From assembly GCF_012767755.2 (NCBI RefSeq), contig NZ_AP023189.1, positions 5,582,001 to 5,646,000 of the forward strand: a DNA stretch of 64,000 nt. Direction: 5' to 3'. The first letter of the stretch is position 1. Each line of letters starts with the position of its first letter. This document shows positions 49,446 to 58,453 of the stretch, in pieces. The translations under genes and the position numbers were made by a program. Origin of the DNA: Pseudomonas tohonis (GTDB lineage Bacteria > Pseudomonadota > Gammaproteobacteria > Pseudomonadales > Pseudomonadaceae). The notes below the pieces were generated by a model. That model ran no database searches, was not told the origin of the DNA, and worked only from the letters and a program-made list of their open reading frames with translations.

Positions 49446-49522
49446 GGCTACGTAGCTCAGCTGGTTAGAGCATAGCATTCATAATGCTGGGGTCCGGGGT
49501 TCAAGTCCCTGCGTAGCCACCA
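49446..49522 (+). tRNA. tRNA-Met(CAT), elongator; integration target
   Basis: 77 bases with encoded CCA: acceptor GGCTACG/CGTAGCC, D-arm AGCTCAGCTGGTTAGAGC, anticodon loop TTCATAA (anticodon CAT) and T-arm with GGTTCAAGTCC. The acceptor sequence is that of elongator tRNA-Met rather than initiator. Its 3' part is duplicated at 57719, so the gene served as an attachment site and remains intact. Confidence 0.96.
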
Positions 49523-49538
49523 TACAAAACAAAGGGTT
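49477..49538 (+). repeat. Left attachment repeat (attL)
   Basis: The 62 bases from the anticodon loop through the tRNA 3' end and 16 bases beyond are identical to 57719-57780. Direct repeats of a tRNA 3' end are the usual result of site-specific integration by a tyrosine recombinase. Confidence 0.93.
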
Positions 49539-49558
49539 AGCTTCGGCTAACCCTTTGT
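49531..49558 (+). terminator. Terminator after tRNA-Met
   Basis: AAAGGGTTAG-CTTCGG-CTAACCCTTTG hairpin immediately after the CCA end. Its left arm is part of the duplicated attachment sequence. Confidence 0.85.
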
Positions 49559-49645
49559 GCTTTCTGGGGTGTTCATTTCTTGACGCTCCCCTGCCCGCCT
49601 CCCTGCACCACGCCCTCCCTCTGATTGCTCTCACCGCAGCGGCCC

Positions 49646-50098
49646 TCATGCTGCGCCGCCCTTCCCTGGCTCCCCGCTCTGGCACACGCCCCCGTCAACA
49701 GCACCGATTGTTGGATCCCGTGACCACAAGGCCTGAATCGTGCGGATGGTGGAAAGGAAGACCTCGCTGGGAAAACGCTCACGGCATTGACCATCGATGG
49801 TCATGAAGAACGCTTCCTCATACACCCCCGCCATGGGCAGAACTACGCCGACGATGTGCTTGCAGCACCAGATCGGCGCCTCGCTGTCGTCCCACACCAG
49901 TTCGACGAGCACCGTCTTGCCGATGTAGCCGATAGCCGTGTCCGAATCGATTCCACCTGACCGGTGGATCAGCCCGCCCCTTACCGAAGCAGACCTGAAA
50001 TCGGAAGTACACGAATCGGGTAGCAGGTAAGGGCAGCAATGGTGTGCCGAAGATTTAGGCGAGCGGGATGACCTAAAGCAAGTGAGCATCATTGGCAT
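49646..50098 (-). CDS. Hypothetical protein, probably 5'-degraded phage-related gene
   Basis: About 150 codons. The part that looks like real protein runs from residue about 38 on (G-G-L-I-H-R-S-G-G-I-D-S-D-T-A-I-G-Y-I-G-K-T-V-L-V-E-L-V-W-D-D-S-E-A), ending shortly after F-P-S-E-V-F-L-S-T-I-R-T-I. The first 30-40 residues are irregular and no ribosome site is evident, so the true start may be lost. I recall similar short proteins in Pseudomonas accessory regions but cannot name a function. Confidence 0.4.
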   Translation of the reverse strand: MPMMLTCFRSSRSPKSSAHHCCPYLLPDSCTSDFRSASVRGGLIHRSGGIDSDTAIGYIGKTVLVELVWDDSEAPIWCCKHIVGVVLPMAGVYEEAFFMTIDGQCRERFPSEVFLSTIRTIQALWSRDPTIGAVDGGVCQSGEPGKGGAA

Positions 50099-50291
50099 GG
50101 ATCGCTTGGCCCGTGAGACGCCCATTGGCTCCAATAGATGGCACATCGTGCTTTACAACAAAGACATACGGATCAGCACCGTTGAGGTAGAAGAACTCAG
50201 CAGGCTCTTCCCTGCCTACCGTTGGTGGTTGATCAGTGGAGAGGTAGCGCCAGAGATAGGGCAGACCAGCCCTGGATACGATGAGGCATAA
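50082..50291 (+). CDS. Repressor-like small DNA-binding protein, probably N-terminally truncated
   Basis: A 69-residue product from GTG 50082 that aligns with the proteins at 58828-59070 and 59076-59333: shared core R-I-S-T-x-E-V-x-x-L, then Y-x-x-W-L-I-S-G and E-x-G-Q-T-S-P. The N-terminal helix of those relatives is not preserved and the open frame continues upstream without a good start, so this is likely a truncated copy. The family resembles the small repressor C proteins of Pf-type filamentous phages. Confidence 0.5.
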   Translation: MSIIGMDRLARETPIGSNRWHIVLYNKDIRISTVEVEELSRLFPAYRWWLISGEVAPEIGQTSPGYDEA

Positions 50292-50550
50292 CGAAACTTG
50301 ACCACTCCAGACGCAGGATAGCGATCACTGAAGCAGCAGCAATGCGTTGGCTCGCCCGCAGGAAGTGAGTCAGGTACGAGACAGGCACTGGAGATGCGAC
50401 TTTCTGGTTACTTGGTTTTTGGTCGAAGGGCATTGATGATGGCGCTTTGAGAACACAGAATAGTCCGGGCGGCCGAGGCCTCGTCCCAGTGTTTCAACAA
50501 CGAGCTGACTGCTTCATTAGTCAGTCAGCAGTACCAAGGAAGGTGCCGTG

Positions 50551-52410
50551 ATGGCTCTGTTTTTCCCTACTCGCTCGACTTGTCGCTTCGATAGCCCAGG
50601 CGAACGTCGCCTAGCTGAGCGCTTAGATAAGAAGCTAAACGACGATTTCCTATGCTGGTTTAACGTCCCTGTTGGCCCGAAGGCACTCCAGCCAGATTTC
50701 GTAATTCTGCATCCGCAGTGGGGCCTTTTAGTCCTAGAAGTCAAAGATTGGAGGCTCGATACCATCCAATCGATGGACAAAGGGACCGCACAGATTATCG
50801 ACAATGGTTCTCTCAAAAAAGTAAAGAACCCCCTCACCCAGGCTCGGGTATATGCGCTTGAAGTAGTGATGGCGCTTCAAAAAGACCCAGAATTGAGACA
50901 GCCACTCGACACTCCTTATGCTGGAAACCTCGCAATACCATGGGGTTTTGGAGTGGTGCTGACATCCATTACCCGCAAGCAGTTCGAACAAACCGAACTT
51001 GCAGCAGTAATGGACCCAAAGAAAGTTCTGTTTCAGGACGAAATGACCGAATCGGTTGAGCCCAATGAGCTGCATAAAAAGCTTACTGGAATGCTTCCCC
51101 CGGTGTTCAGGTGTAACTTGTCGAAGTCTCAGATCGACAGAATTCGGTACCACCTATTCCCTGAAGTCAGAGTTAATAGCGAACCCGGTCAGTTTGGGCT
51201 TTTCGCTGAAACTGAAGCTCCTCTACCCGATCTCATTAAAGTAATGGATCTACAGCAAGAGCTATTGGCTCGATCCATGGGAGAAGGACATCGAGTAATT
51301 CATGGAGTAGCTGGTAGCGGAAAGACAATGATTTTAGGCTACCGCTGCGCTTATCTAGCCTCCGCAACTAGCAAACCCATATTAGTACTTTGCTTTAATC
51401 GTTCGTTGGCCGGCCGACTTAATCAAGTCATGAGCAACAAGGGGTTGAAAGAAAAAGTAGTGGTGCGTAGTTTTCACGCTTGGTGCCGAGAGCAACTAAC
51501 TGCTTCTGGCATTCCCCTTCCAGAAAAATGCGCAATTAACGAAAAAATGAACAAATTTGTTCAGCTCACTATTAGCGCTGTTGAGGAAGGCATAATATCG
51601 AAGGAACAGTACTCAGCCGTATTAATTGATGAGGGACATGACTTCGAACCCGACTGGCTAAGGCTAGCCGTAAAAATGGTAGATAGTAGAACAAACTCGT
51701 TACTGCTTCTATTTGATGACGCCCAGTCGATTTACCGAAGCAAAAACAGCAAAGAGCGTCTCGGCTTTACATTTGCAAGCGTTGGAATTCAAGCACCAGG
51801 AAGAACCACTGTCTTAAAGCTCAACTACAGAAATACAGCTGAGACTCTAGCCGTTGCGAAAGCATTATCTACAGATCTACTAGCAGAGAAAAGTGGATCC
51901 GAAGAGTCAATTCCAACAATCGCCCCCGAAAGTGCAGGCCGTCGTGGAAAGGTCCCAGAGCTGCTGAGATTCCAATCTGAAGAAGCTGAATGGAACTGTA
52001 TTACTGAACGAATAAAAGATGCACAAGGACAAGGCAGACAACTTAGCGACATAGCGATTATTTACCGATCTCAGTCGCATGGCGTGAGAGCTGAAGAAGT
52101 GCTCCGACGTGAAGGGATTCCATTCTCCTCCGGCCTCTCGCAAAAAGGCAAGGGAACTTTATACACAGACAGAGACACCGTAAAAATCATAAGTATGCAC
52201 TCGAGCAAAGGCCTTGAATTCGGGGTAGTTTTTATTCCATCAATGCAAAGCATGCCCCAGAACGATACTGATGAAATAGATGAGGCACGCTTAGCTTACG
52301 TAGCCATGACACGAGCCACAGAATATTTAGTGATGACGCACAGTAAAGACTCAATATTTACAACGCGCATTCAAGAGGCTATAGAACGTGCATCAAGGCA
52401 AAAACAATGA
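50551..52410 (+). CDS. NERD-domain UvrD/Rep-like helicase
   Basis: A 619-residue protein. Residues about 15-125 form a NERD (nuclease-related) domain: S-P-G-E-R-R-L near the start, D49 and E63-V-K65 as a PD-(D/E)xK-like active site. Residues about 230-610 form a superfamily 1 helicase: Walker A G-V-A-G-S-G-K-T (252-259), D-E of motif II at 360-361, S-S-K-G-L-E-F (551-557) and Y-V-A-M-T-R-A near 583. ATG 50551 follows aaggaaggt. Standalone NERD helicases are frequent in defence islands; predicted role is unwinding plus cleavage of foreign or damaged DNA. It leads the island operon. Confidence 0.88.
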   Translation: MALFFPTRSTCRFDSPGERRLAERLDKKLNDDFLCWFNVPVGPKALQPDFVILHPQWGLLVLEVKDWRLDTIQSMDKGTAQIIDNGSLKKVKNPLTQARVYALEVVMALQKDPELRQPLDTPYAGNLAIPWGFGVVLTSITRKQFEQTELAAVMDPKKVLFQDEMTESVEPNELHKKLTGMLPPVFRCNLSKSQIDRIRYHLFPEVRVNSEPGQFGLFAETEAPLPDLIKVMDLQQELLARSMGEGHRVIHGVAGSGKTMILGYRCAYLASATSKPILVLCFNRSLAGRLNQVMSNKGLKEKVVVRSFHAWCREQLTASGIPLPEKCAINEKMNKFVQLTISAVEEGIISKEQYSAVLIDEGHDFEPDWLRLAVKMVDSRTNSLLLLFDDAQSIYRSKNSKERLGFTFASVGIQAPGRTTVLKLNYRNTAETLAVAKALSTDLLAEKSGSEESIPTIAPESAGRRGKVPELLRFQSEEAEWNCITERIKDAQGQGRQLSDIAIIYRSQSHGVRAEEVLRREGIPFSSGLSQKGKGTLYTDRDTVKIISMHSSKGLEFGVVFIPSMQSMPQNDTDEIDEARLAYVAMTRATEYLVMTHSKDSIFTTRIQEAIERASRQKQ

Positions 52411-52486
52411 ACTTTATCTTCTTAAATTCATTAGTGCCAAACAATGAAAAATAAAACCAATTCTAGCAGCTCAACCTAAGGATCCC

Positions 52487-52795
52487 ATGCCAGTCTACGT
52501 AGATAATGTGAGAATTAAATGGCGGGGCAAGGAATGGTGCCACTTAGTAGCCGATACTCTTGATGAGCTACATGAGTTTGCGAGCTCGCTAGGACTAAAA
52601 AGGAGCTGGTTTCAGCACTCAGCGTCCTATCCTCACTATGACATTACAATATCAGCAAGAAAAAAGGCCTTACAGCTGGGAGCACACCAAGGAAGTCGCG
52701 AAGTGATTATTCAATGCGCTAAGAGCCTGAAAAGCCAGTATGAATTTTCTTTGCCCAAAGAAAAAATAACAAGCCCTCAACTTAGTTTACTGTAA
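52487..52795 (+). CDS. DUF4031 family protein
   Basis: A 102-residue protein with the DUF4031 pattern: M-P-V-Y-V-D-N at the start, W-C-H-L-V-A-D-T-x-D-E-L-H (about residues 17-29), then W-F-Q and P-H-Y-D-I-T. Members are found in phages and mobile elements; no biochemical role is established to my knowledge. The gene begins 76 bases after the helicase and 45 bases before the thymidylate-synthase-like gene, same strand. Confidence 0.8.
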   Translation: MPVYVDNVRIKWRGKEWCHLVADTLDELHEFASSLGLKRSWFQHSASYPHYDITISARKKALQLGAHQGSREVIIQCAKSLKSQYEFSLPKEKITSPQLSLL

Positions 52796-52840
52796 TACAC
52801 ACTGACAGCACCACACCAAGGCAGGTATAAGGGGCAAGCC

Positions 52841-53878
52841 GTGTATGTAAAAGAAGAAACTCTAGACGACCTACTAAACAACATATACACAAAGCTTCTG
52901 AAAAAGAAAGAAAAAATCACTGCAACAAAAGGCAGCTTCAAAGAAATAACAGGTGCCCTTCTTCATATAAAACGCCCACGCGCACGACTAAGCCGAGCCG
53001 AGGGAAAAGGAAAATTATTCAGCTGCCTTGGTGAGCTTGCTTGGTACCTGTCAGGGTCCAAAGATCTTAAATTTATAACTCATTATATTCCTCTATACAA
53101 AAAAAGCTCTGACGACAGAAAAACAGTATATGGGGGATATGGCCCAAGACTGATGGGAGCTGGCAAGAATAACCAGCTAAAAACAATAATAAAAATTCTA
53201 TCTGAAAAAAATACGTCACGACAAGCTGTAGTACAGCTCTTTGATGCAAAGGATATATTAAAACCTCGAAAAGACATACCTTGCACCTGCACTCTTCAGT
53301 TCTTAGTGAGAAAAGAGAGGCTACATATGTTTACCTCAATGAGGTCAAACGATGTGTATCTCGGGCTTCCGCACGATGTATTTGCATTTACCATGATACA
53401 AGAATTACTTGCCCGCTCATTAGGATGTGAGATCGGAGAATATAAGCATTACGTCAGCAGCCTCCATCTTTACGAAAAAAATTTTGAAGAGGCAAAATCC
53501 TACATTAACAGTGGCTTTCAACAAACAATTGAAATGCCGGAGATGCCCAAAGGAGATCCTTGGTCAAGCATTGAAGCCCTCCTAGATGCTGAGCAAAGAA
53601 TAAGAGCAGGCGAAGATATAGACGCTGAAAGCTTAAGCCTGGATCATTACTGGCTAGACCTCATAAGGATTTTACAATTTTTCCGATATACAAAGCATGA
53701 AGATGAAAGCAGTAAAATCGAGCCTATCCTTCATGCGATGAAAAGTAATGTATATACGGCTTACCTTGAAAAAAGAATGTTGGAAAAGTCTCCAACCACT
53801 ATCATAGCTCCCGCACAACTAGAAATTTTGCTTTCCCCAAAGGCAGAAAATGAAGTCTATAATTCGAGAATTAATTAA
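52841..53878 (+). CDS. Thymidylate-synthase-fold protein, candidate (d)CMP hydroxymethylase
   Basis: A 345-residue protein starting at GTG 52841 (aagggg upstream). Residues about 20-235 show the thymidylate synthase fold: G-E-L-A-W-Y-L-S-G-S, V-Y-G near 100, catalytic Cys148 in I-P-C-T-C-T-L-Q-F, R168-S-N-D-V-Y-L-G-L-P and H-L-Y after S-S. The residue equivalent to Asn177 of E. coli ThyA (31 after the catalytic Cys) is Asp179; Asp there is the mark of T4 dCMP hydroxymethylase, which also numbers Cys148/Asp179. The His after the catalytic Cys is Thr. About 100 C-terminal residues are extra. It likely hydroxymethylates a cytidine nucleotide at C5, not standard dTMP synthesis. Overlaps the next gene by 29 bases. 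Confidence 0.82.
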   Translation: MYVKEETLDDLLNNIYTKLLKKKEKITATKGSFKEITGALLHIKRPRARLSRAEGKGKLFSCLGELAWYLSGSKDLKFITHYIPLYKKSSDDRKTVYGGYGPRLMGAGKNNQLKTIIKILSEKNTSRQAVVQLFDAKDILKPRKDIPCTCTLQFLVRKERLHMFTSMRSNDVYLGLPHDVFAFTMIQELLARSLGCEIGEYKHYVSSLHLYEKNFEEAKSYINSGFQQTIEMPEMPKGDPWSSIEALLDAEQRIRAGEDIDAESLSLDHYWLDLIRILQFFRYTKHEDESSKIEPILHAMKSNVYTAYLEKRMLEKSPTTIIAPAQLEILLSPKAENEVYNSRIN

Positions 53879-54647
53879 CCTCCTTAACAACGACAGAGTT
53901 ATTTCTTCTGATGCGATGACATGGGGGGCTCCAATACCTTCATTTGGCGCCCCATCTATTGCGCATATAGCAACGCTAGGATTGAACCCCAGCGATAAAG
54001 AATTCCTCGACAACTCCGGAAAGGAAATAAACGGTGAGCTACGGAGATTTCACACACTGAAGTCACTTGGAATTGTTAACTGGGAGCAGTTAACAGACCA
54101 TCATATAGAGCTTATCGAGAGCTCATGCACTGATTACTTTCTAAGAAATCCATATAACAATTGGTTCAGATCACTAGATAGCATCATAAGCGGTACATCA
54201 GCTTCGTACTACAACAAGCTATTCCATGCAGTGCACTTAGATTTAGTTCCTTTCGCTACAAACTCCAAGTGGGCCAATTTAAAAAACAGCCAAAAAAACA
54301 CGCTCTTGGAACTATCGGGAAATTCTCTCGGAAAGATAATAACAGGCACTCCTATCAAAATAATAATTCTCAACGGAAGTACCGTAGTTGAAAACTTCGA
54401 AAAGATATCCAAAACAAAATTAGTTCCAGAGTACATTCCAGACTGGGACCTCACACGCGCCGGAGCCCCAAGTGTTAAAGGAATATCATATAGCGGCGTT
54501 GTTACAAATATCTCTAACATAGGGCTAGATCATCCAATTCTAGCACTTGGATTTAATCACAATATTCAAAGCAGCTTCGGCGTCACTCTAAAAGTAAGAA
54601 ACTCCATAAGAGATTGGATTACCGCACAGTCAATGAGGGGACTCTAA
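53850..54647 (+). CDS. Uracil-DNA-glycosylase superfamily-like protein
   Basis: A 265-residue protein. Features consistent with the UDG superfamily fold are A-T-L-G-L-N-P-S-D (about residues 47-55, equivalent to the G-x-N-P motif I), H-L-D-L-V-P-F-A-T (about 129-137), I-I-L-N-G-S-T-V (about 170-177) and a late G-F-N-H-N-I-Q-S-S (about 241-249, His of motif II). I assign the superfamily from these motifs only. Family members excise modified bases, and one branch (Brig1) defends against phages with glucosylated hydroxymethylcytosine. It is co-translated with the flanking genes: 29-base overlap before, zero gap after. Confidence 0.6.
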   Translation: MKSIIRELINLLNNDRVISSDAMTWGAPIPSFGAPSIAHIATLGLNPSDKEFLDNSGKEINGELRRFHTLKSLGIVNWEQLTDHHIELIESSCTDYFLRNPYNNWFRSLDSIISGTSASYYNKLFHAVHLDLVPFATNSKWANLKNSQKNTLLELSGNSLGKIITGTPIKIIILNGSTVVENFEKISKTKLVPEYIPDWDLTRAGAPSVKGISYSGVVTNISNIGLDHPILALGFNHNIQSSFGVTLKVRNSIRDWITAQSMRGL

Positions 54648-55583
54648 ATGCGAGAAAGAGACAAAGAAAAAGCAAGAGAACTAGAAGAAAGATTAGAAAA
54701 TTTTTCTAAGAACATCAGACCGCTACCTGGAATTGAGCCCCAAGAGAATAGACAGGTACTAATAGACCAGCTAATAGATAGCATTAGAAGAATAAAATAT
54801 GTTGAAGCCATACGACAAAGGCGTCTAAGCCCACTTAGGAGTGATGCCAATAGCGAAATATTTGACCCAATAAAAGCAGCTGTATTACATGCGCAAAGTG
54901 GAAATATTGAGGAGGCAAGTTGGCTGATATTCCTAGCAACCCACTTTGGAAAAAGCAGCCAAGACGGCTGGGCGCTGACTCAAGCATTTTACAATGCTCT
55001 AGGTCAAGGCTTCGTCTGGAGCTGGGAGAGGGTCGCATATAATCCTGAAGCAGTACTTGAATGGCTAGCAAGGAACTACCCAGAATTCGCTCTAAGAGGC
55101 TATCGCTTCGGCAACCACAGAAAGTACGAAACGATGAACCCCGCAAAGAATGGCTTCACCGGATTAGCTCTGAGAAGCTACGTAAACTGGATTCTCAGCA
55201 ATAAGTCCCACGCCGAGACATTTAATCAAGCTATCGAGAAAAGCCAAGGAAACTCGAAAAATGCATTTCGCCAACTATATAAATCAATGAGCTCTGTTTC
55301 TCGCTTTGGAAGAATGGGGAAATTTGACTATCTAACGATGATAGCAAAAATTGGGATTGCGAACATTGAGGCCGACTCCACTTATATGGGAAATGCTACC
55401 GGCCCATATGATGGAGGCAACCTGCTATTTTCAGGAAAGGCAAACGCCAGCATACCAAGAAAAACACTTGACAACTGGCTGATTGAATTAGACGAAGAGC
55501 TTGGCGTCGGAATGCAAGTATTAGAAGACGCACTTTGTAACTGGCAAAAATCCCCCGGAAAATACACTAGATTCCGAGGTTAG
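54648..55583 (+). CDS. Alpha-glutamyl/putrescinyl-thymine pyrophosphorylase clade 3-like protein
   Basis: A 311-residue helical protein starting immediately after the preceding stop codon. Motifs I associate with the aGPT-Pplase clade 3 family are F-D-P-I-K-A-A-V-L (about 73-81), L-A-T-H-F-G-K, R-F-G-N-H-R-K-Y-E (about 149-157), R-F-G-R-M-G-K-F-D-Y-L-T-M and G-M-Q-V-L-E-D-A-L-C-N-W-Q-K near the C-terminus. Related phage clades act on 5-hydroxymethyl pyrimidines in DNA during hypermodification. Together with the TS-fold and glycosylase-like genes it suggests DNA base modification. The 3' end overlaps the convergent antitoxin gene by four bases. Confidence 0.72.
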   Translation: MRERDKEKARELEERLENFSKNIRPLPGIEPQENRQVLIDQLIDSIRRIKYVEAIRQRRLSPLRSDANSEIFDPIKAAVLHAQSGNIEEASWLIFLATHFGKSSQDGWALTQAFYNALGQGFVWSWERVAYNPEAVLEWLARNYPEFALRGYRFGNHRKYETMNPAKNGFTGLALRSYVNWILSNKSHAETFNQAIEKSQGNSKNAFRQLYKSMSSVSRFGRMGKFDYLTMIAKIGIANIEADSTYMGNATGPYDGGNLLFSGKANASIPRKTLDNWLIELDEELGVGMQVLEDALCNWQKSPGKYTRFRG

Positions 55584-56671
55584 TCAGTCCCCTGCCAGCG
55601 ATACCTAATTTTCAAATTTTGCATATGATTTGGCTTTATAATCCCTTGGTGCTGTAACTGTCCGACCACAATACCAGGGGATACTCCCAGTTTTCGCGAA
55701 AACCGTATAATCGCTCTTAAGTTATTTTTAAGTGACGGTAGCTCAGCAGCATATTCAGGCGGAATTAGAAAATTCTGAGAGAAGGTATTTGCTTCATTTT
55801 CACGATCATCACTGACAACATCAGCCCCCTCAACGAAGACTGAATCCTCACCATGCAATATCAAGTGACCGGCTTCATGGAAGAATGTAAACCAAAAGTG
55901 ATCGTCTGATAGATATCTGAAGCTCAACATTAGAAGTGCTTTATCAGCAGATAGAAATTTTGTAGCCCCACTTGCCTGACATCCACTTGGGGTTCTAGCT
56001 ATAACAACGGCGACACCGCACTGAGCACAAATTCTCTGTAACTCAGGAAGAAAGACAGAAGGATCATCTTCTAATGTTAGGCGGCGAATCTCCGAAAGCG
56101 ATGACAAAAATCTCTCTCGATCCCACTGCGCACAATCTAAAAACTCTGCCTCAGTTTCGCATTGTTTAATCCAAGCGGCTACTGCTCCGAGTTGAGGACT
56201 AAAAGCTTGCGAGGTTCGAAATTTAGCCAAGTCAGGAGTACTTCGATATATTTCTCGCCATGCAGCCACATTATTAACATCAAAAAAGCTGAGGCAATTA
56301 ATTAGATTCCTAGCGGGCGACCGAGTTTTAGGAATCCAACCATATTTCTGCATACTCGAAACTGGCAGCTCAGCTAACCACTGACTATCATCTTCAGAAA
56401 GCGGCTGATTCATTACCTCTAAAAAATCGACGTACTGCTGCTCTCTTCTTAACCAAAACCCCGGAGAGGCTCCTAGGACTTCAGAAAGCCGCGAAGCTAA
56501 CTGCTCAGTTATTCGCACATCTCCCTTAATTAAAGAGTCTACATATCCTTGACTCCCACCTAACATCTCTGCAAAATCAGAAAAGCCAATCCCCTTCTCT
56601 AATAAAACGTCTGAGATAGTGTCACCAGGTGGATATATGGCTCCATGCCTAAACTTTGAGACTTCAAGCAT
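55580..56671 (-). CDS. HigA-type antitoxin fused to ImmA/IrrE metallopeptidase
   Basis: A 363-residue protein with an N-terminal XRE helix-turn-helix of HigA/VapI type (about residues 15-80: T-I-S-D-V-L-L-E-K-G ... Y-V-D-S-L-I-K-G) and a C-terminal ImmA/IrrE (peptidase M78) domain with zinc motif H-E-A-G-H at about 265-269 and a downstream E-N-E-A-N-x-F helix. ATG 56671 is preferred to the in-frame TTG at 56689; it then overlaps the upstream toxin-like gene by 8 bases (ATGCTTGA). Such fusions neutralise HigB-like toxins and may add proteolytic control. Confidence 0.85.
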   Translation of the reverse strand: MLEVSKFRHGAIYPPGDTISDVLLEKGIGFSDFAEMLGGSQGYVDSLIKGDVRITEQLASRLSEVLGASPGFWLRREQQYVDFLEVMNQPLSEDDSQWLAELPVSSMQKYGWIPKTRSPARNLINCLSFFDVNNVAAWREIYRSTPDLAKFRTSQAFSPQLGAVAAWIKQCETEAEFLDCAQWDRERFLSSLSEIRRLTLEDDPSVFLPELQRICAQCGVAVVIARTPSGCQASGATKFLSADKALLMLSFRYLSDDHFWFTFFHEAGHLILHGEDSVFVEGADVVSDDRENEANTFSQNFLIPPEYAAELPSLKNNLRAIIRFSRKLGVSPGIVVGQLQHQGIIKPNHMQNLKIRYRWQGTD

Positions 56672-56993
56672 CTCTAGATATCTCCACAAGCTTAATCCTA
56701 CGCACCATCTGCCAGTTTACATTACCATGCACGTCTGTGGGCATTTTTTGATCAACGGCACAAAATAATGCTGAATACCCTTCAGAGAGCGCGATAGAGA
56801 AGGACCCTGGAGGAATTCTTGACAGAAAATCTAATGTAACGGGAAGATCGAACAGGTCGTCGGCTGCACAAATATCGTCAATTCTCCGGTGGAGTGTCCG
56901 GACTACTGCGAGAGGAAAGTGTCGCTTTGCAACAGACTCTTTCTCGCAAATATTTCTGAGCTTTTTATCTGAATAAGAAATATCTAGCGACAT
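56664..56993 (-). CDS. HigB/RelE-family toxin-like protein
   Basis: A 109-residue basic-acidic protein with the HigB pattern: S-Y-S-D-K-K-L-R-N-I-C near the start, a helix with L-H-R-R-I-D-D-I-C, D-L-P, and a strand-rich C-terminal half (F-S-I-A-L-S-E-G-Y). Gene order toxin first, antitoxin second, with an 8-base overlap, is the standard hig order. HigB toxins cleave mRNA at the ribosome. PAO1 carries a different higBA pair beside the same tRNA-Met, from memory. Confidence 0.78.
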   Translation of the reverse strand: MSLDISYSDKKLRNICEKESVAKRHFPLAVVRTLHRRIDDICAADDLFDLPVTLDFLSRIPPGSFSIALSEGYSALFCAVDQKMPTDVHGNVNWQMVRRIKLVEISRDA

Positions 56994-57718
56994 GCAAATA
57001 TCGCCCTATCAGATACTTTCTCAACGTGATGAAATGGCACACTCACTCCTTCGAGAAGCCACATAGCAAGAGGCCACTACCGTAACGCATGTAAAGCCCG
57101 AGGTAAAGCTCAGTTGTCACTTAGAGTGCGACGTCACCGACCCAGCTACCTTACGTGCGGCACCTACACATACATCCGCTAGTTTGGGTGATTCCCCTCT
57201 ATCAGCAAGATCATTCAGCCCCTGAAGTGCAACAGACTAGGCCTCCTTTCAACGTTGCCCTCAGCCTTAAGTAAAAGGTAGGTATTTGGCTTCGTTACAC
57301 ACCTGCTTCTGTGATATCCAAACGGTTTCGAAAATCTAAGTGCCCCGTAAACGGTATGGGTATAGACCAAAACTGAGCCTTACTTGTTTCGGCAAGCGCT
57401 CAAGATACCTCCCCATTAGGCAGATTGCGCTTTGCCTCGCAAGCTCTGAAACTTCCCGAATGAAGGCTAGCGACGTAGTTGGACTAACCAATTTGTGCTG
57501 CTAGGCTAGAGCTGGCCATGGCATGCGCTTTTCATCAGGTACCGCCCGCCTTGGCCGTTCATCCGGATCCTTTGAGGGGCGTGACGAGATAGGAAATCCA
57601 AGATCGGGGTGACTACATTGGAGGATTTTCCCGAAAATCTGTGGTCCTGTGAGGTTGGCATTAGGCTAGAAGCCCCGAGTCATGCGTCTTTAGGTAGCAA
57701 TAGGTCGCCCCTCACATA
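56994..57718. other. Non-coding right end of the island
   Basis: These 725 bases between the toxin start and the right repeat hold no reading frame longer than about 60 codons that looks like protein. They presumably contain the promoter of the toxin-antitoxin pair near 57000-57060. An integrase remnant would be expected here but I cannot recognise one. Confidence 0.5.
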
Positions 57719-57780
57719 ATTCATAATGCTGGGGTCCGGGGTTCAAGTCCCTGCGTAGCCACCATACAAAACAAAGGGTT
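57719..57780 (+). repeat. Right attachment repeat (attR)
   Basis: Perfect 62-base copy of 49477-49538: the tRNA-Met 3' part from the anticodon loop through CCA plus 16 downstream bases. The 5' half of the tRNA is absent, so this copy is not a functional tRNA gene. Confidence 0.93.
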
Positions 57781-57804
57781 TAGCGAAAGCTAAGCCCTTT
57801 TTTA
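57774..57804 (+). terminator. Hairpin terminator at the right repeat
   Basis: AAGGGTTTAGC-GAAA-GCTAAGCCCTTTTTT. It differs from the hairpin after tRNA-Met in the loop and second arm but has the same position relative to the repeat, probably the original chromosomal or previous-element tRNA terminator. Confidence 0.75.
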
Positions 57805-57907
57805 TTTGCCTCGAAAATTTAATGGTTCGATGCCCCTCATCACTCGCGATGGCGCGTGAGTGGACGGCCTGGATGCAGGCGCATCAGGGAGATGCCAGAA
57901 GTCTGGA

Positions 57908-58240
57908 TCAGTTTTCTGACTTGGTAGCGCACGTCCTGCAGTGACGAGGCGGTAACTCCAGATCCGCGCCGCATGAGGAGAAGCGTCGGTTCATCTCACT
58001 CCCCAACTGTCGGCCCCCTTCCCTGCCCGGCCACCCTTGCGGCTTCCGAGCGAAGGTCTCGCGCAGGTAGAGGCCGGCAGGTAACGCCAAGCCCCAGCGC
58101 CCCCGAACATCGACCCAGGGTGCGCGTGCCCTCAGCGTCACGACAGGTACCGCATGCAGTGCTCCCGTGGACGACGACACAAGCAGGCAAAGCAGGCGCA
58201 ACTCCCTGCGCCCGCGAAGCTTCCGAACATTGCCTTTCAT
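57908..58240 (-). CDS. Hypothetical phage-type protein with signal-like N-terminus
   Basis: A 110-residue product whose start at 58240 has ggag four to five bases upstream (ATGGAGACTC ATG). It opens with a basic region and a hydrophobic segment (L-R-L-L-C-L-L-V-S-S-S-T-G) and is Arg-rich afterwards. It follows the 67-residue gene by 9 bases in the same direction, as the third gene of a small cluster. No family is recognised with confidence. Confidence 0.5.
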   Translation of the reverse strand: MKGNVRKLRGRRELRLLCLLVSSSTGALHAVPVVTLRARAPWVDVRGRWGLALPAGLYLRETFARKPQGWPGREGGRQLGSEMNRRFSSCGADLELPPRHCRTCATKSEN

Positions 58241-58249
58241 GAGTCTCCA

Positions 58250-58453
58250 TCACCCCCGGCCCTGTCGCTGGGCAAATGCATTCAGGCCCAATTGGTCGAT
58301 TCGTCGCAGCGCCGCGGCTTCGTAGGCACCCGTGTCATGCAGCGCATCCACGTAACCGGTAAAGCGCATGAACTGTGCGAACGCACGATCCGGGTCCGCG
58401 TAGCGGATGATCCGCAACAGAATCAGCAACTGGTGGACGGTGGTCTTATTCAT
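58250..58453 (-). CDS. Small Pf-phage-like hypothetical protein
   Basis: A 67-residue helical protein (M-N-K-T-T-V-H-Q-L-L-I-L-L-R, then Y-A-D-P-D-R-A-F-A-Q-F-M-R-F-T-G-Y). It resembles a short early-region protein of Pseudomonas Pf-type filamentous prophages, from memory. It overlaps the excisionase-like gene by 8 bases, so the two are coupled. Confidence 0.6.
   Translation of the reverse strand: MNKTTVHQLLILLRIIRYADPDRAFAQFMRFTGYVDALHDTGAYEAAALRRIDQLGLNAFAQRQGRG

What the first reader, a model, noticed from the sequence alone, without database searches (positions are those of the whole stretch)
52841..55583. Candidate new DNA-base modification/excision cassette: TS-fold hydroxymethylase, UDG-like protein and aGPT-Pplase3-like protein in one operon
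Three AT-rich genes are packed with a 29-base overlap and a zero-base gap. The first is a thymidylate-synthase-fold protein with hydroxymethylase-type active site, the second shows UDG-superfamily motifs, the third carries motifs of the aGPT pyrophosphorylase clade 3 family, whose phage relatives act on 5-hydroxymethyl pyrimidines in DNA. Seen directly: motifs, gene spacing, island location. Known: family roles in hypermodified-phage biology. Inferred: the trio makes, senses or removes a modified pyrimidine, most likely as anti-phage defence or as an element-encoded DNA mark.
Basis: partly seen in the sequence, partly recalled or inferred. Interest (0 to 1): 0.92.

Follow-up and report, generated by a model that had tools for sequence, protein, structure and literature searches.

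The report
Guarded cytosine-hydroxymethylase defence cassette
A mobile island in a Pseudomonas genome carries a five-gene cassette, four genes of which recur together in bacteria of eight phyla, that pairs enzymes resembling those phages use to make modified cytosine bases with a toxin-antitoxin-like guard, and is probably an immune system nobody has tested yet.

Summary

Convergent with gene 3 are a HigA-HTH + M78 metalloprotease protein (like PD-lambda-2_B) and a HigB-like protein. In 80 homologous loci from eight phyla the TS-fold gene is found in 79, the M78 protein in 78 and the HigB-like protein in 77; every absence is at a contig end. The UDG is optional (31 of 80). More distant relatives of the M78-HigB pair sit inside Type I restriction-modification operons. 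The island occupies a tRNA-Met hotspot where three relatives carry other, mostly defence-like cargo.

Best reading: a modification-plus-guard anti-phage cassette. What the enzymes make, in DNA or in nucleotides, is unknown, and no partner kinase was found. DefensePredictor (2026) already predicts an aGPT-Pplase system as defence, untested. No wet evidence exists here.

The parts
52841..53878 (+). TS-fold pyrimidine-nucleotide hydroxymethylase, predicted dCMP 5-hydroxymethylase (345 aa)
   Evidence: PF00303; nearest solved structure MilA CMP 5-hydroxymethylase E 2.1e-41 against 7.8e-16 for the best ThyA; C148, S169, D179 in 78 of 78, D/E145 in 71 of 78
53850..54647 (+). UDG-fold protein, optional member (265 aa); motifs GLNPS (44-48), HLD (129-131), HNxQ (237-240)
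54648..55583 (+). aGPT-Pplase clade 3 / amino acid:DNA transferase-like protein, all-alpha (311 aa)
55580..56689 (-). HigA-type HTH + M78 (ImmA/IrrE) metalloprotease protein, convergent with gene 3 (369 aa)
   Evidence: PF06114 3.3e-9; PADLOC PD-Lambda-2_B 1.5e-24, 36 of 36 members scanned match; 78 of 80 loci; HExxH in 77 of 78
56664..56993 (-). HigB-like small protein (109 aa) with an invariant Cys16
   Evidence: phrog_3066 TA toxin 2.7e-4; 1 of 4 relatives scanned (L051) hits PF05015 HigB 1.6e-4, under the cut-off; 77 of 80 loci; C16 in 63 of 63 aligned
52487..52795 (+). DUF4031 protein, occasional member (10 of 80 loci)
   Evidence: PF13223 1.7e-26; tally
50548..52410 (+). NERD-UvrD helicase, cargo of the same island; not a recurrent member of the cassette
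   Evidence: PADLOC C3a187 4e-162; no such cluster among recurrent neighbours
49477..49538 (+). left copy of a perfect 62-bp direct repeat, overlapping the 3' half of tRNA-Met (49446-49522): probable attL
57719..57780 (+). right copy of the 62-bp repeat: probable attR

Best explanation
The unit is a mobile anti-phage cassette of constant layout: TS> (UDG>) aGPT3> <M78-HTH <HigB-like. Shown: gene order, conservation, predicted folds and active-site signatures. Inferred mechanism: the TS-fold enzyme makes 5-hydroxymethyl-dCMP; the aGPT3/AADT-like protein uses that hydroxymethylcytosine (in DNA, or before incorporation) to form a further modified base that marks self DNA; where present, the UDG-fold protein removes wrong or unfinished modified bases. 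The HTH-M78 protease and its HigB-like partner form a toxin-antitoxin-like guard that stays silent while the mark or its maker is intact and stops growth or triggers death when infection perturbs it. Weakest steps: that the product ends up in DNA, that the mark is what the M78 protein senses, and that aGPT3 works without a partner kinase.
For: Constancy: TS 79, M78 78 and HigB-like 77 of 80 loci, all absences at contig ends; TS lies beside aGPT3 at 25 of 26 distinct places (duplicates merged, own locus counted once; exception L085). Substrate: D179 = cytosine determinant, S169 = deoxyribose determinant, D/E145 = hydroxylation determinant. Folds. Guard: M78 protein matches PD-Lambda-2_B (36 of 36), part of a validated abortive-infection TA-like system; relatives (M78 34-36% identical to the window's) lie between hsdM and hsdS/hsdR in Type I RM operons (L163, L165); the 40 cassette M78 proteins in the tree (window + 39 of 78) form one side of a branch (SH-aLRT 99, quick tree), which fits one recruitment and long co-inheritance. 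Defence context: rare and patchy (4 of 398 genomes); perfect 62-bp repeats at a tRNA; three relatives carry RT + AAA/HNH, Mrr or Fic genes at the same site.
Confidence: 0.4

Rival explanations
1. Nucleotide-level system: TS (with aGPT3) makes or consumes a modified deoxycytidine nucleotide that is never meant for DNA. The nucleotide starves or poisons phage replication, or acts as a signal that holds or releases the M78-HigB module. UDG or the small MazG-like protein keep it out of DNA.
Against: The aGPT3 fold and Pfam relatives are mostly DNA-acting (PUGT, HhH glycosylases); relatives of the guard sit in DNA-methylation systems. The MazG-like assignment is weak (4qgp E 0.061), and the UDG/MazG exclusivity cannot be told from clade membership (one independent pair).
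Confidence: 0.25
2. Sensor/excision system against phages with modified bases: UDG and aGPT3 recognise or excise hydroxymethyl- or hypermodified pyrimidines in phage DNA and the M78-HigB module kills the cell.
For: UDG fold with a conserved Asn46 motif; Brig1, a UDG-fold anti-T4 glycosylase, has the S. tokodaii UDG as its best structural match (passage), which is also the top row for gene 2 (tied with T. maritima UDG); HhH-glycosylase-like fold of aGPT3.
Against: TS is present in 79 of 80 loci while the UDG is in 31; a maker of the base is not needed to detect a phage's base. The catalytic Asp of HhH-GPD glycosylases (recalled) is not evident among the conserved columns of aGPT3 (my reading).
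Confidence: 0.2
3. Not defence: an accessory pyrimidine-salvage or antimetabolite pathway (as in mildiomycin or bacimethrin biosynthesis, where a MilA-type enzyme precedes an N-glycosidase), with M78-HigB as an ordinary addiction module.
For: Closest solved TS relative is MilA; TA-like modules often only stabilise islands (general knowledge).
Against: None of the 12 clusters present in 4 or more loci looks like a transporter or biosynthetic gene (my reading of the sequences); the deoxyribose signature S169 is 78 of 78 while MilA has Ala; the M78-HigB pair is equally constant in eight phyla; the tRNA hotspot carries defence-like cargo in relatives.
Confidence: 0.06

Closest known systems
T4 dCMP hydroxymethylase (gp42) and MilA/BcmA CMP hydroxymethylases
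   Same: TS fold, catalytic Cys, Asp for cytosine; D/E three residues before Cys; Ser for deoxyribose as in T4 dCH
   Different: Bacterial, in a defence-like cassette without a recognisable dNMP kinase; activity not shown
Phage amino acid:DNA transferases / aGPT-Pplase (PUGT of PaMx11, 8z2n)
   Same: Pfam PF18746/PF18724, all-alpha fold
   Different: No 5-hmdU DNA kinase partner; partner enzyme is cytosine-type; no sequence-level PDB relative
PD-lambda-2 (Vassallo 2022, PMC9519451) and RosmerTA/CapP proteases
   Same: HigA-type HTH fused to a C-terminal ImmA/M78 peptidase, HigB-like partner gene
   Different: No gene for the third component (P4 antitoxin-related PD-lambda-2C) is constant; convergent with a base-modification operon
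Brig1 anti-phage UDG-fold glycosylase (PMC11078745, passages)
   Same: UDG fold, top structural match to the S. tokodaii UDG
   Different: One gene of Brig1's locus gives the immunity; here the UDG is an optional member of a fixed cassette; sequence relation not tested
DefensePredictor predicted aGPT-Pplase system (PMC13092281, Fig. 6F legend)
   Same: aGPT-Pplase proposed as an unvalidated defence domain; HTH and UDG appear among that figure's abbreviations
   Different: Figure and supplement not seen, so whether it is this very operon is unknown; the passages I saw give no dCMP-hydroxymethylase or M78-guard analysis

Membership tests
dCMP 5-hydroxymethylase | catalytic Cys and Asp (not Asn) at the cytosine-recognition position (T4 C148, D179) | tested here: met
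   78 of 78 rows, window + 77 loci; residue roles from passages of PMC6400193 and PMC5175136
dCMP 5-hydroxymethylase | Ser (deoxyribose) instead of MilA Ala176, and Arg instead of Lys133 | tested here: met
   Window has both. Ser169 78 of 78; Arg127 63 of 78, Lys (as in MilA) in 14, gap in 1
dCMP 5-hydroxymethylase | Asp/Glu three residues before the Cys (water activation, T4 D145) | tested here: met
   D in the window; D 30 + E 41 of 78, others S5, P1, N1
dCMP 5-hydroxymethylase | converts dCMP to hm-dCMP in vitro | not testable with these tools
   needs an enzyme assay
Thymidylate synthase (ThyA) | Asn at the dUMP-recognition position | tested here: not met
   Asp in 78 of 78; the host has another TS at G000:C1:515393, E 1.3e-127
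UDG superfamily | UDG fold with conserved GxNP- and His-containing motifs | tested here: met
Family 4 UDG / UdgX | four Cys for an iron-sulphur cluster (recalled) | tested here: not met
   only one Cys column (C93) reaches 90% in A1
Brig1 | sequence homology and alpha-glucosyl-hmC excision | not tested
   no Brig1 sequence at hand; only the shared top structural match is known
aGPT-Pplase / amino acid:DNA transferase | Pfam model over the curated cut-off | tested here: met
   337.4 bits against cut-off 25 (PF18746); 245.5 against 26.2 (PF18724)
aGPT-Pplase / amino acid:DNA transferase | partner 5-hmdU DNA kinase supplying the activated base | tested here: not met
   PF18723 in 1 of 43 cassette genomes, not in the window's own; no kinase-like recurrent cluster
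PD-lambda-2 | HigA-HTH + peptidase protein (component B) | tested here: met
   36 of 36 members match PDLC03982
PD-lambda-2 | HigB-like component A | tested here: inconclusive
   no PD-Lambda-2_A hit in 23 members; PF05015 1.6e-4 in 1 of 4 relatives, below the cut-off
PD-lambda-2 | component C (P4 antitoxin-related) | tested here: inconclusive
   no third - strand gene is constant in 80 loci; not searched with a PD-lambda-2C sequence
Anti-phage defence system | reduces plating of a phage | not testable with these tools
   needs plaque assays

The most novel reading that the evidence does not exclude
A bacterial immune system with no restriction nuclease: the host itself makes a hydroxymethyl-deoxycytidine-derived mark (or signal nucleotide) with a T-even-type dCMP hydroxymethylase and an amino acid:DNA transferase-like enzyme that works without a DNA kinase, and a dedicated HTH-M78 protease/HigB-like guard reads the state of that mark and triggers abortive infection when a phage disturbs it.
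Probability: 0.3. Interest if true: 0.9.

Novelty: new variant of a known kind. Interest (0 to 1): 0.72.

Why it matters
If true, cellular bacteria would use the phage trick of hydroxymethylating cytosine in their own defence, with a protease-type toxin-antitoxin module standing guard in place of a nuclease. It would suggest a common logic for the M78/HigB modules found inside some restriction-modification operons (guarding a DNA-modification machine), reveal a kinase-independent branch of the aGPT/AADT family, and point to a possible new modified base in bacteria of eight phyla. All of this is directly testable with LC-MS and plaque assays.

Tried and rejected
UDG/MazG as alternative sanitisers: they never co-occur (0 of 31 against 22 of 49, Fisher 3.5e-6), but in the aGPT3 tree the MazG-like rows all lie in one starred set of 26 rows (alphaproteobacterial but for one Planctomycetales MAG) and only one independent pair exists on supported branches, so the exclusivity cannot be told from shared ancestry and I do not use it. 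The MazG name is a weak call (no Pfam hit) that I first made from a recalled motif.

NERD-UvrD helicase as part of the system: rejected, it does not recur. Kinase-driven phage hypermodification pathway: rejected for lack of a kinase. Phage origin: no match to the UDG or aGPT3 in 50,697 phage records at 1e-5; 22 aGPT3 loci and 4 UDG loci in IMG/VR contigs (the 4 lie on contigs that also gave aGPT3) have the cassette layout as far as the contigs reach and may be proviruses or mobile islands; I did not examine which. UDG outside the cassette: in 398 genomes of the phylum only the window's own was found, which says little about independence; the Bacteroidota sample I wanted could not be run. Foldseek of aGPT3 against PDB gave nothing better than E 0.95. 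Sequence search of PDB with aGPT3 gave only chance hits. Flanking genes: 99 of the 139 selected flanking proteins of 200 aa or more were scanned (later loci and some long proteins left out to meet the size limit); among the 25 families listed of 85 (Pfam) and of 97 (PADLOC) were Mrr 3, SduA 2, C5 methylases 2, phage integrases 3, GajB 1, an oligonucleotide cyclase 1; no control set, so only suggestive. McrBC prevalence in cassette genomes (10 of 43) was not compared with a baseline.
Full report
WHAT IS THERE. The three ORFs are as described: TS-fold 52841-53878, UDG-like 53850-54647 (29-base overlap), aGPT-like 54648-55583 (no gap). GC is 40-44% in 52-56 kb against 63-73% at 42-49 kb and 66-69% at 59-62 kb. 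The window is G000:C1:5582001-5646000 of a 6.8-Mb single-contig genome; the nearest aGPT3 protein in the database (98%) is named Pseudomonas tohonis, so the host is a Pseudomonas of that group.

ISLAND. A perfect 62-bp direct repeat lies at 49477-49538, overlapping tRNA-Met 49446-49522, and at 57719-57780. Between them are a NERD-UvrD helicase, a DUF4031 protein, the trio, an HTH-M78 protein and a HigB-like protein; no integrase showed among the ORFs I scanned. Three relatives match the window up to 49955 (G001, G002) or 50364 (G017), that is 0.4-0.8 kb past the left repeat, and again from 57603-58332 on, but carry other cargo in between: G017 an RT gene and an AAA + HNH pair, G001 a DUF6119 and an Mrr endonuclease gene, G002 a Fic gene and a weakly DUF4034-like protein. 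The site is a hotspot for exchangeable, mostly defence-like cargo; the Fic case is the least clear.

RECURRENCE. A scan of genome contigs with aGPT3 gave 80 loci (the best 80 of 93). HMM searches of their ORFs found TS in 79, M78 in 78, HigB-like in 77, UDG in 31, the MazG-like protein in 22 and DUF4031 in 10. TS is absent only in L076, M78 only in L003 and L046, HigB-like in these two and L071; in each the contig ends there. M78 is on the strand opposite to aGPT3 in 77 of 78 clustered cases, median gap 8 bases. By NCBI ranks the loci span Pseudomonadota, Bacteroidota, Acidobacteriota, Chloroflexota, Actinomycetota, Planctomycetota, Verrucomicrobiota and Myxococcota (several are MAGs). The sample is biased to relatives sharing short peptides with the query. 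Less biased: 398 genomes of the phylum gave 4 with aGPT3, of which 3 (own, G323, G419) have TS and M78 beside it and 1 (G161, a more distant member whose contig starts 1.65 kb upstream) has neither. The UDG family was found only in the own genome. Eight of 72,556 plasmids carry aGPT3; none of 50,697 phage records does at 1e-5. Of 95 near relatives, own genome included, only the own has it. This is the patchy pattern of a mobile accessory system. Other clusters seen in 4 or more of the 80 fetched regions look, by my reading of the sequences, like an integrase (7 loci), an Mrr-like nuclease (4), DnaN (4) and GyrB (4), and one antisense-like ORF (4); none is constant. Divergent families could have been split by the clustering.

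GENE 1. The nearest solved structure is MilA, CMP 5-hydroxymethylase (E 2.1e-41; best ThyA 7.8e-16). According to passages of PMC5175136 and PMC6400193, Asp at T4 position 179 selects cytosine over uracil, Ser in place of MilA Ala176 (with Arg for Lys133) selects deoxyribose, and Asp/Glu three before the Cys activates the water for hydroxylation. In the window plus 77 loci these are Asp 78 of 78, Ser 78 of 78, Arg 63 (Lys 14, gap 1), Asp/Glu 71 of 78, and Cys 78 of 78. So dCMP 5-hydroxymethylase is the prediction; not ThyA, which the host has elsewhere.

THE MISSED HALF. M78 protein: HigA-type HTH (PDB HigA chains E about 4e-11, CapP E 0.007 by profile) and M78 protease (PF06114; HExxH in 77 of 78). 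All 36 members scanned (window + 35 of 78) match PADLOC PD-Lambda-2_B; 35 match an RmrA model and 35 the CapP model. In PD-lambda-2 the peptidase protein is toxic alone and the HigB-like protein neutralises it, with abortive-infection defence (passages of PMC9519451); RosmerTA is the related family with an ImmA-protease antitoxin (passages of PMC10440598). The HigB-like protein is divergent, with an invariant Cys16 and only sub-threshold similarity to HigB. Full-length M78 relatives without aGPT3 were found in the phylum sample (396 genomes). I fetched the surroundings of 16; 9 of the 16 also have a HigB-like gene. In L163 and L165 HigB-like and M78 lie between two hsdM genes and hsdS/hsdR on one strand; in L168 M78 follows two hsdM genes and precedes a GajA-like gene; in L158 and L160 the pair is followed by a DEAD-like protein and a GIY-YIG protein (families scanned on L165, L168 and L160 proteins, the other loci assigned by clustering). 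For the remaining 11 I scanned one neighbour in each of three (a DUF4143 AAA protein, a hybrid histidine kinase, one without hits) and none in eight. In a quick tree of 57 M78 proteins the 40 cassette ones form one side of a branch (SH-aLRT 99), which fits one recruitment followed by long joint inheritance.

MECHANISM. TS, aGPT3, M78 and HigB-like stay together, so the readout most likely concerns what TS and aGPT3 do; the UDG is an accessory. Some relatives of the guard live in DNA-methylation operons, which favours a guard of DNA modification. Against a finished DNA-mark story: no DNA kinase (PF18723 in 1 of 43 cassette genomes), no recurrent nucleotide kinase, and McrC in 10 of 43 (five with E below 1e-73, no baseline). 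I therefore give 0.4 to the guarded self-mark, 0.25 to a nucleotide-level product, 0.2 to sensing or excision of phage bases.

PRIOR ART. Five papers hold 'aGPT-Pplase' (listing only, except one). PMC13092281 (DefensePredictor; section 5 in full, other passages; figures and supplements not seen) names aGPT-Pplase among the domains of eight predicted, untested systems of Fig. 6F, whose legend also defines HTH and UDG, and reports validated systems that contain, among other new defence domains, a thymidylate synthase and a 5-hmdU kinase (whether together I did not see). A search for uracil DNA glycosylase, thymidylate synthase, anti-phage defense and hydroxymethyl together found only that paper; searches combining HigB/Xre/M78/phage defence/DNA modification (none) and dCMP hydroxymethylase/antitoxin/DNA glycosylase/anti-phage (15 listed) showed no paper on this cassette by title and abstract. 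Iyer et al. 2013 and Burroughs et al. 2015, which from memory first described the aGPT-Pplase clades and related nucleotide-centred systems, are not held. So 'aGPT-Pplase as defence' is not new; the fixed architecture with a dCMP-hydroxymethylase signature and a PD-lambda-2-type guard I did not find in these searches.

Noticed in passing
window 49446-57780; L182-L184: tRNA-Met hotspot: three Pseudomonas relatives share both flanks but carry different cargo (RT + AAA/HNH genes; DUF6119 + Mrr; Fic + DUF4034-like). No integrase seen inside the window's island.
   Followed up: partly
L163, L165, L168: HigB-like/M78 modules embedded between hsdM and hsdS/hsdR of Type I RM operons, or M78 beside two hsdM genes and a GajA-like gene.
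   Followed up: partly
L158, L160: HigB-like/M78 pair followed by a DEAD-like protein (681-728 aa) and a GIY-YIG (T5orf172) protein with no PADLOC match: possible separate M78-guarded system.
   Followed up: no
window 56664-56993 and family A4: Invariant Cys16 (63 of 63) in the otherwise divergent HigB-like family; role unknown.
   Followed up: no
L006, L012, L018: DUF4031 sits next to the UDG gene with a small - strand gene (cluster c13), in L018 moved downstream of aGPT3, suggesting DUF4031-UDG as a submodule.
   Followed up: no
22 of L001-L080, e.g. L049, L054; A5: MazG-like small protein behind HigB-like, nearly confined to Alphaproteobacteria; only weak similarity to known pyrophosphatases.
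   Followed up: partly
L175 (G161): A distant aGPT-Pplase3 homologue without TS or M78 adjacent.
   Followed up: no
window 50548-52410: NERD-UvrD helicase (PADLOC C3a187) as separate cargo of the same island.
   Followed up: no
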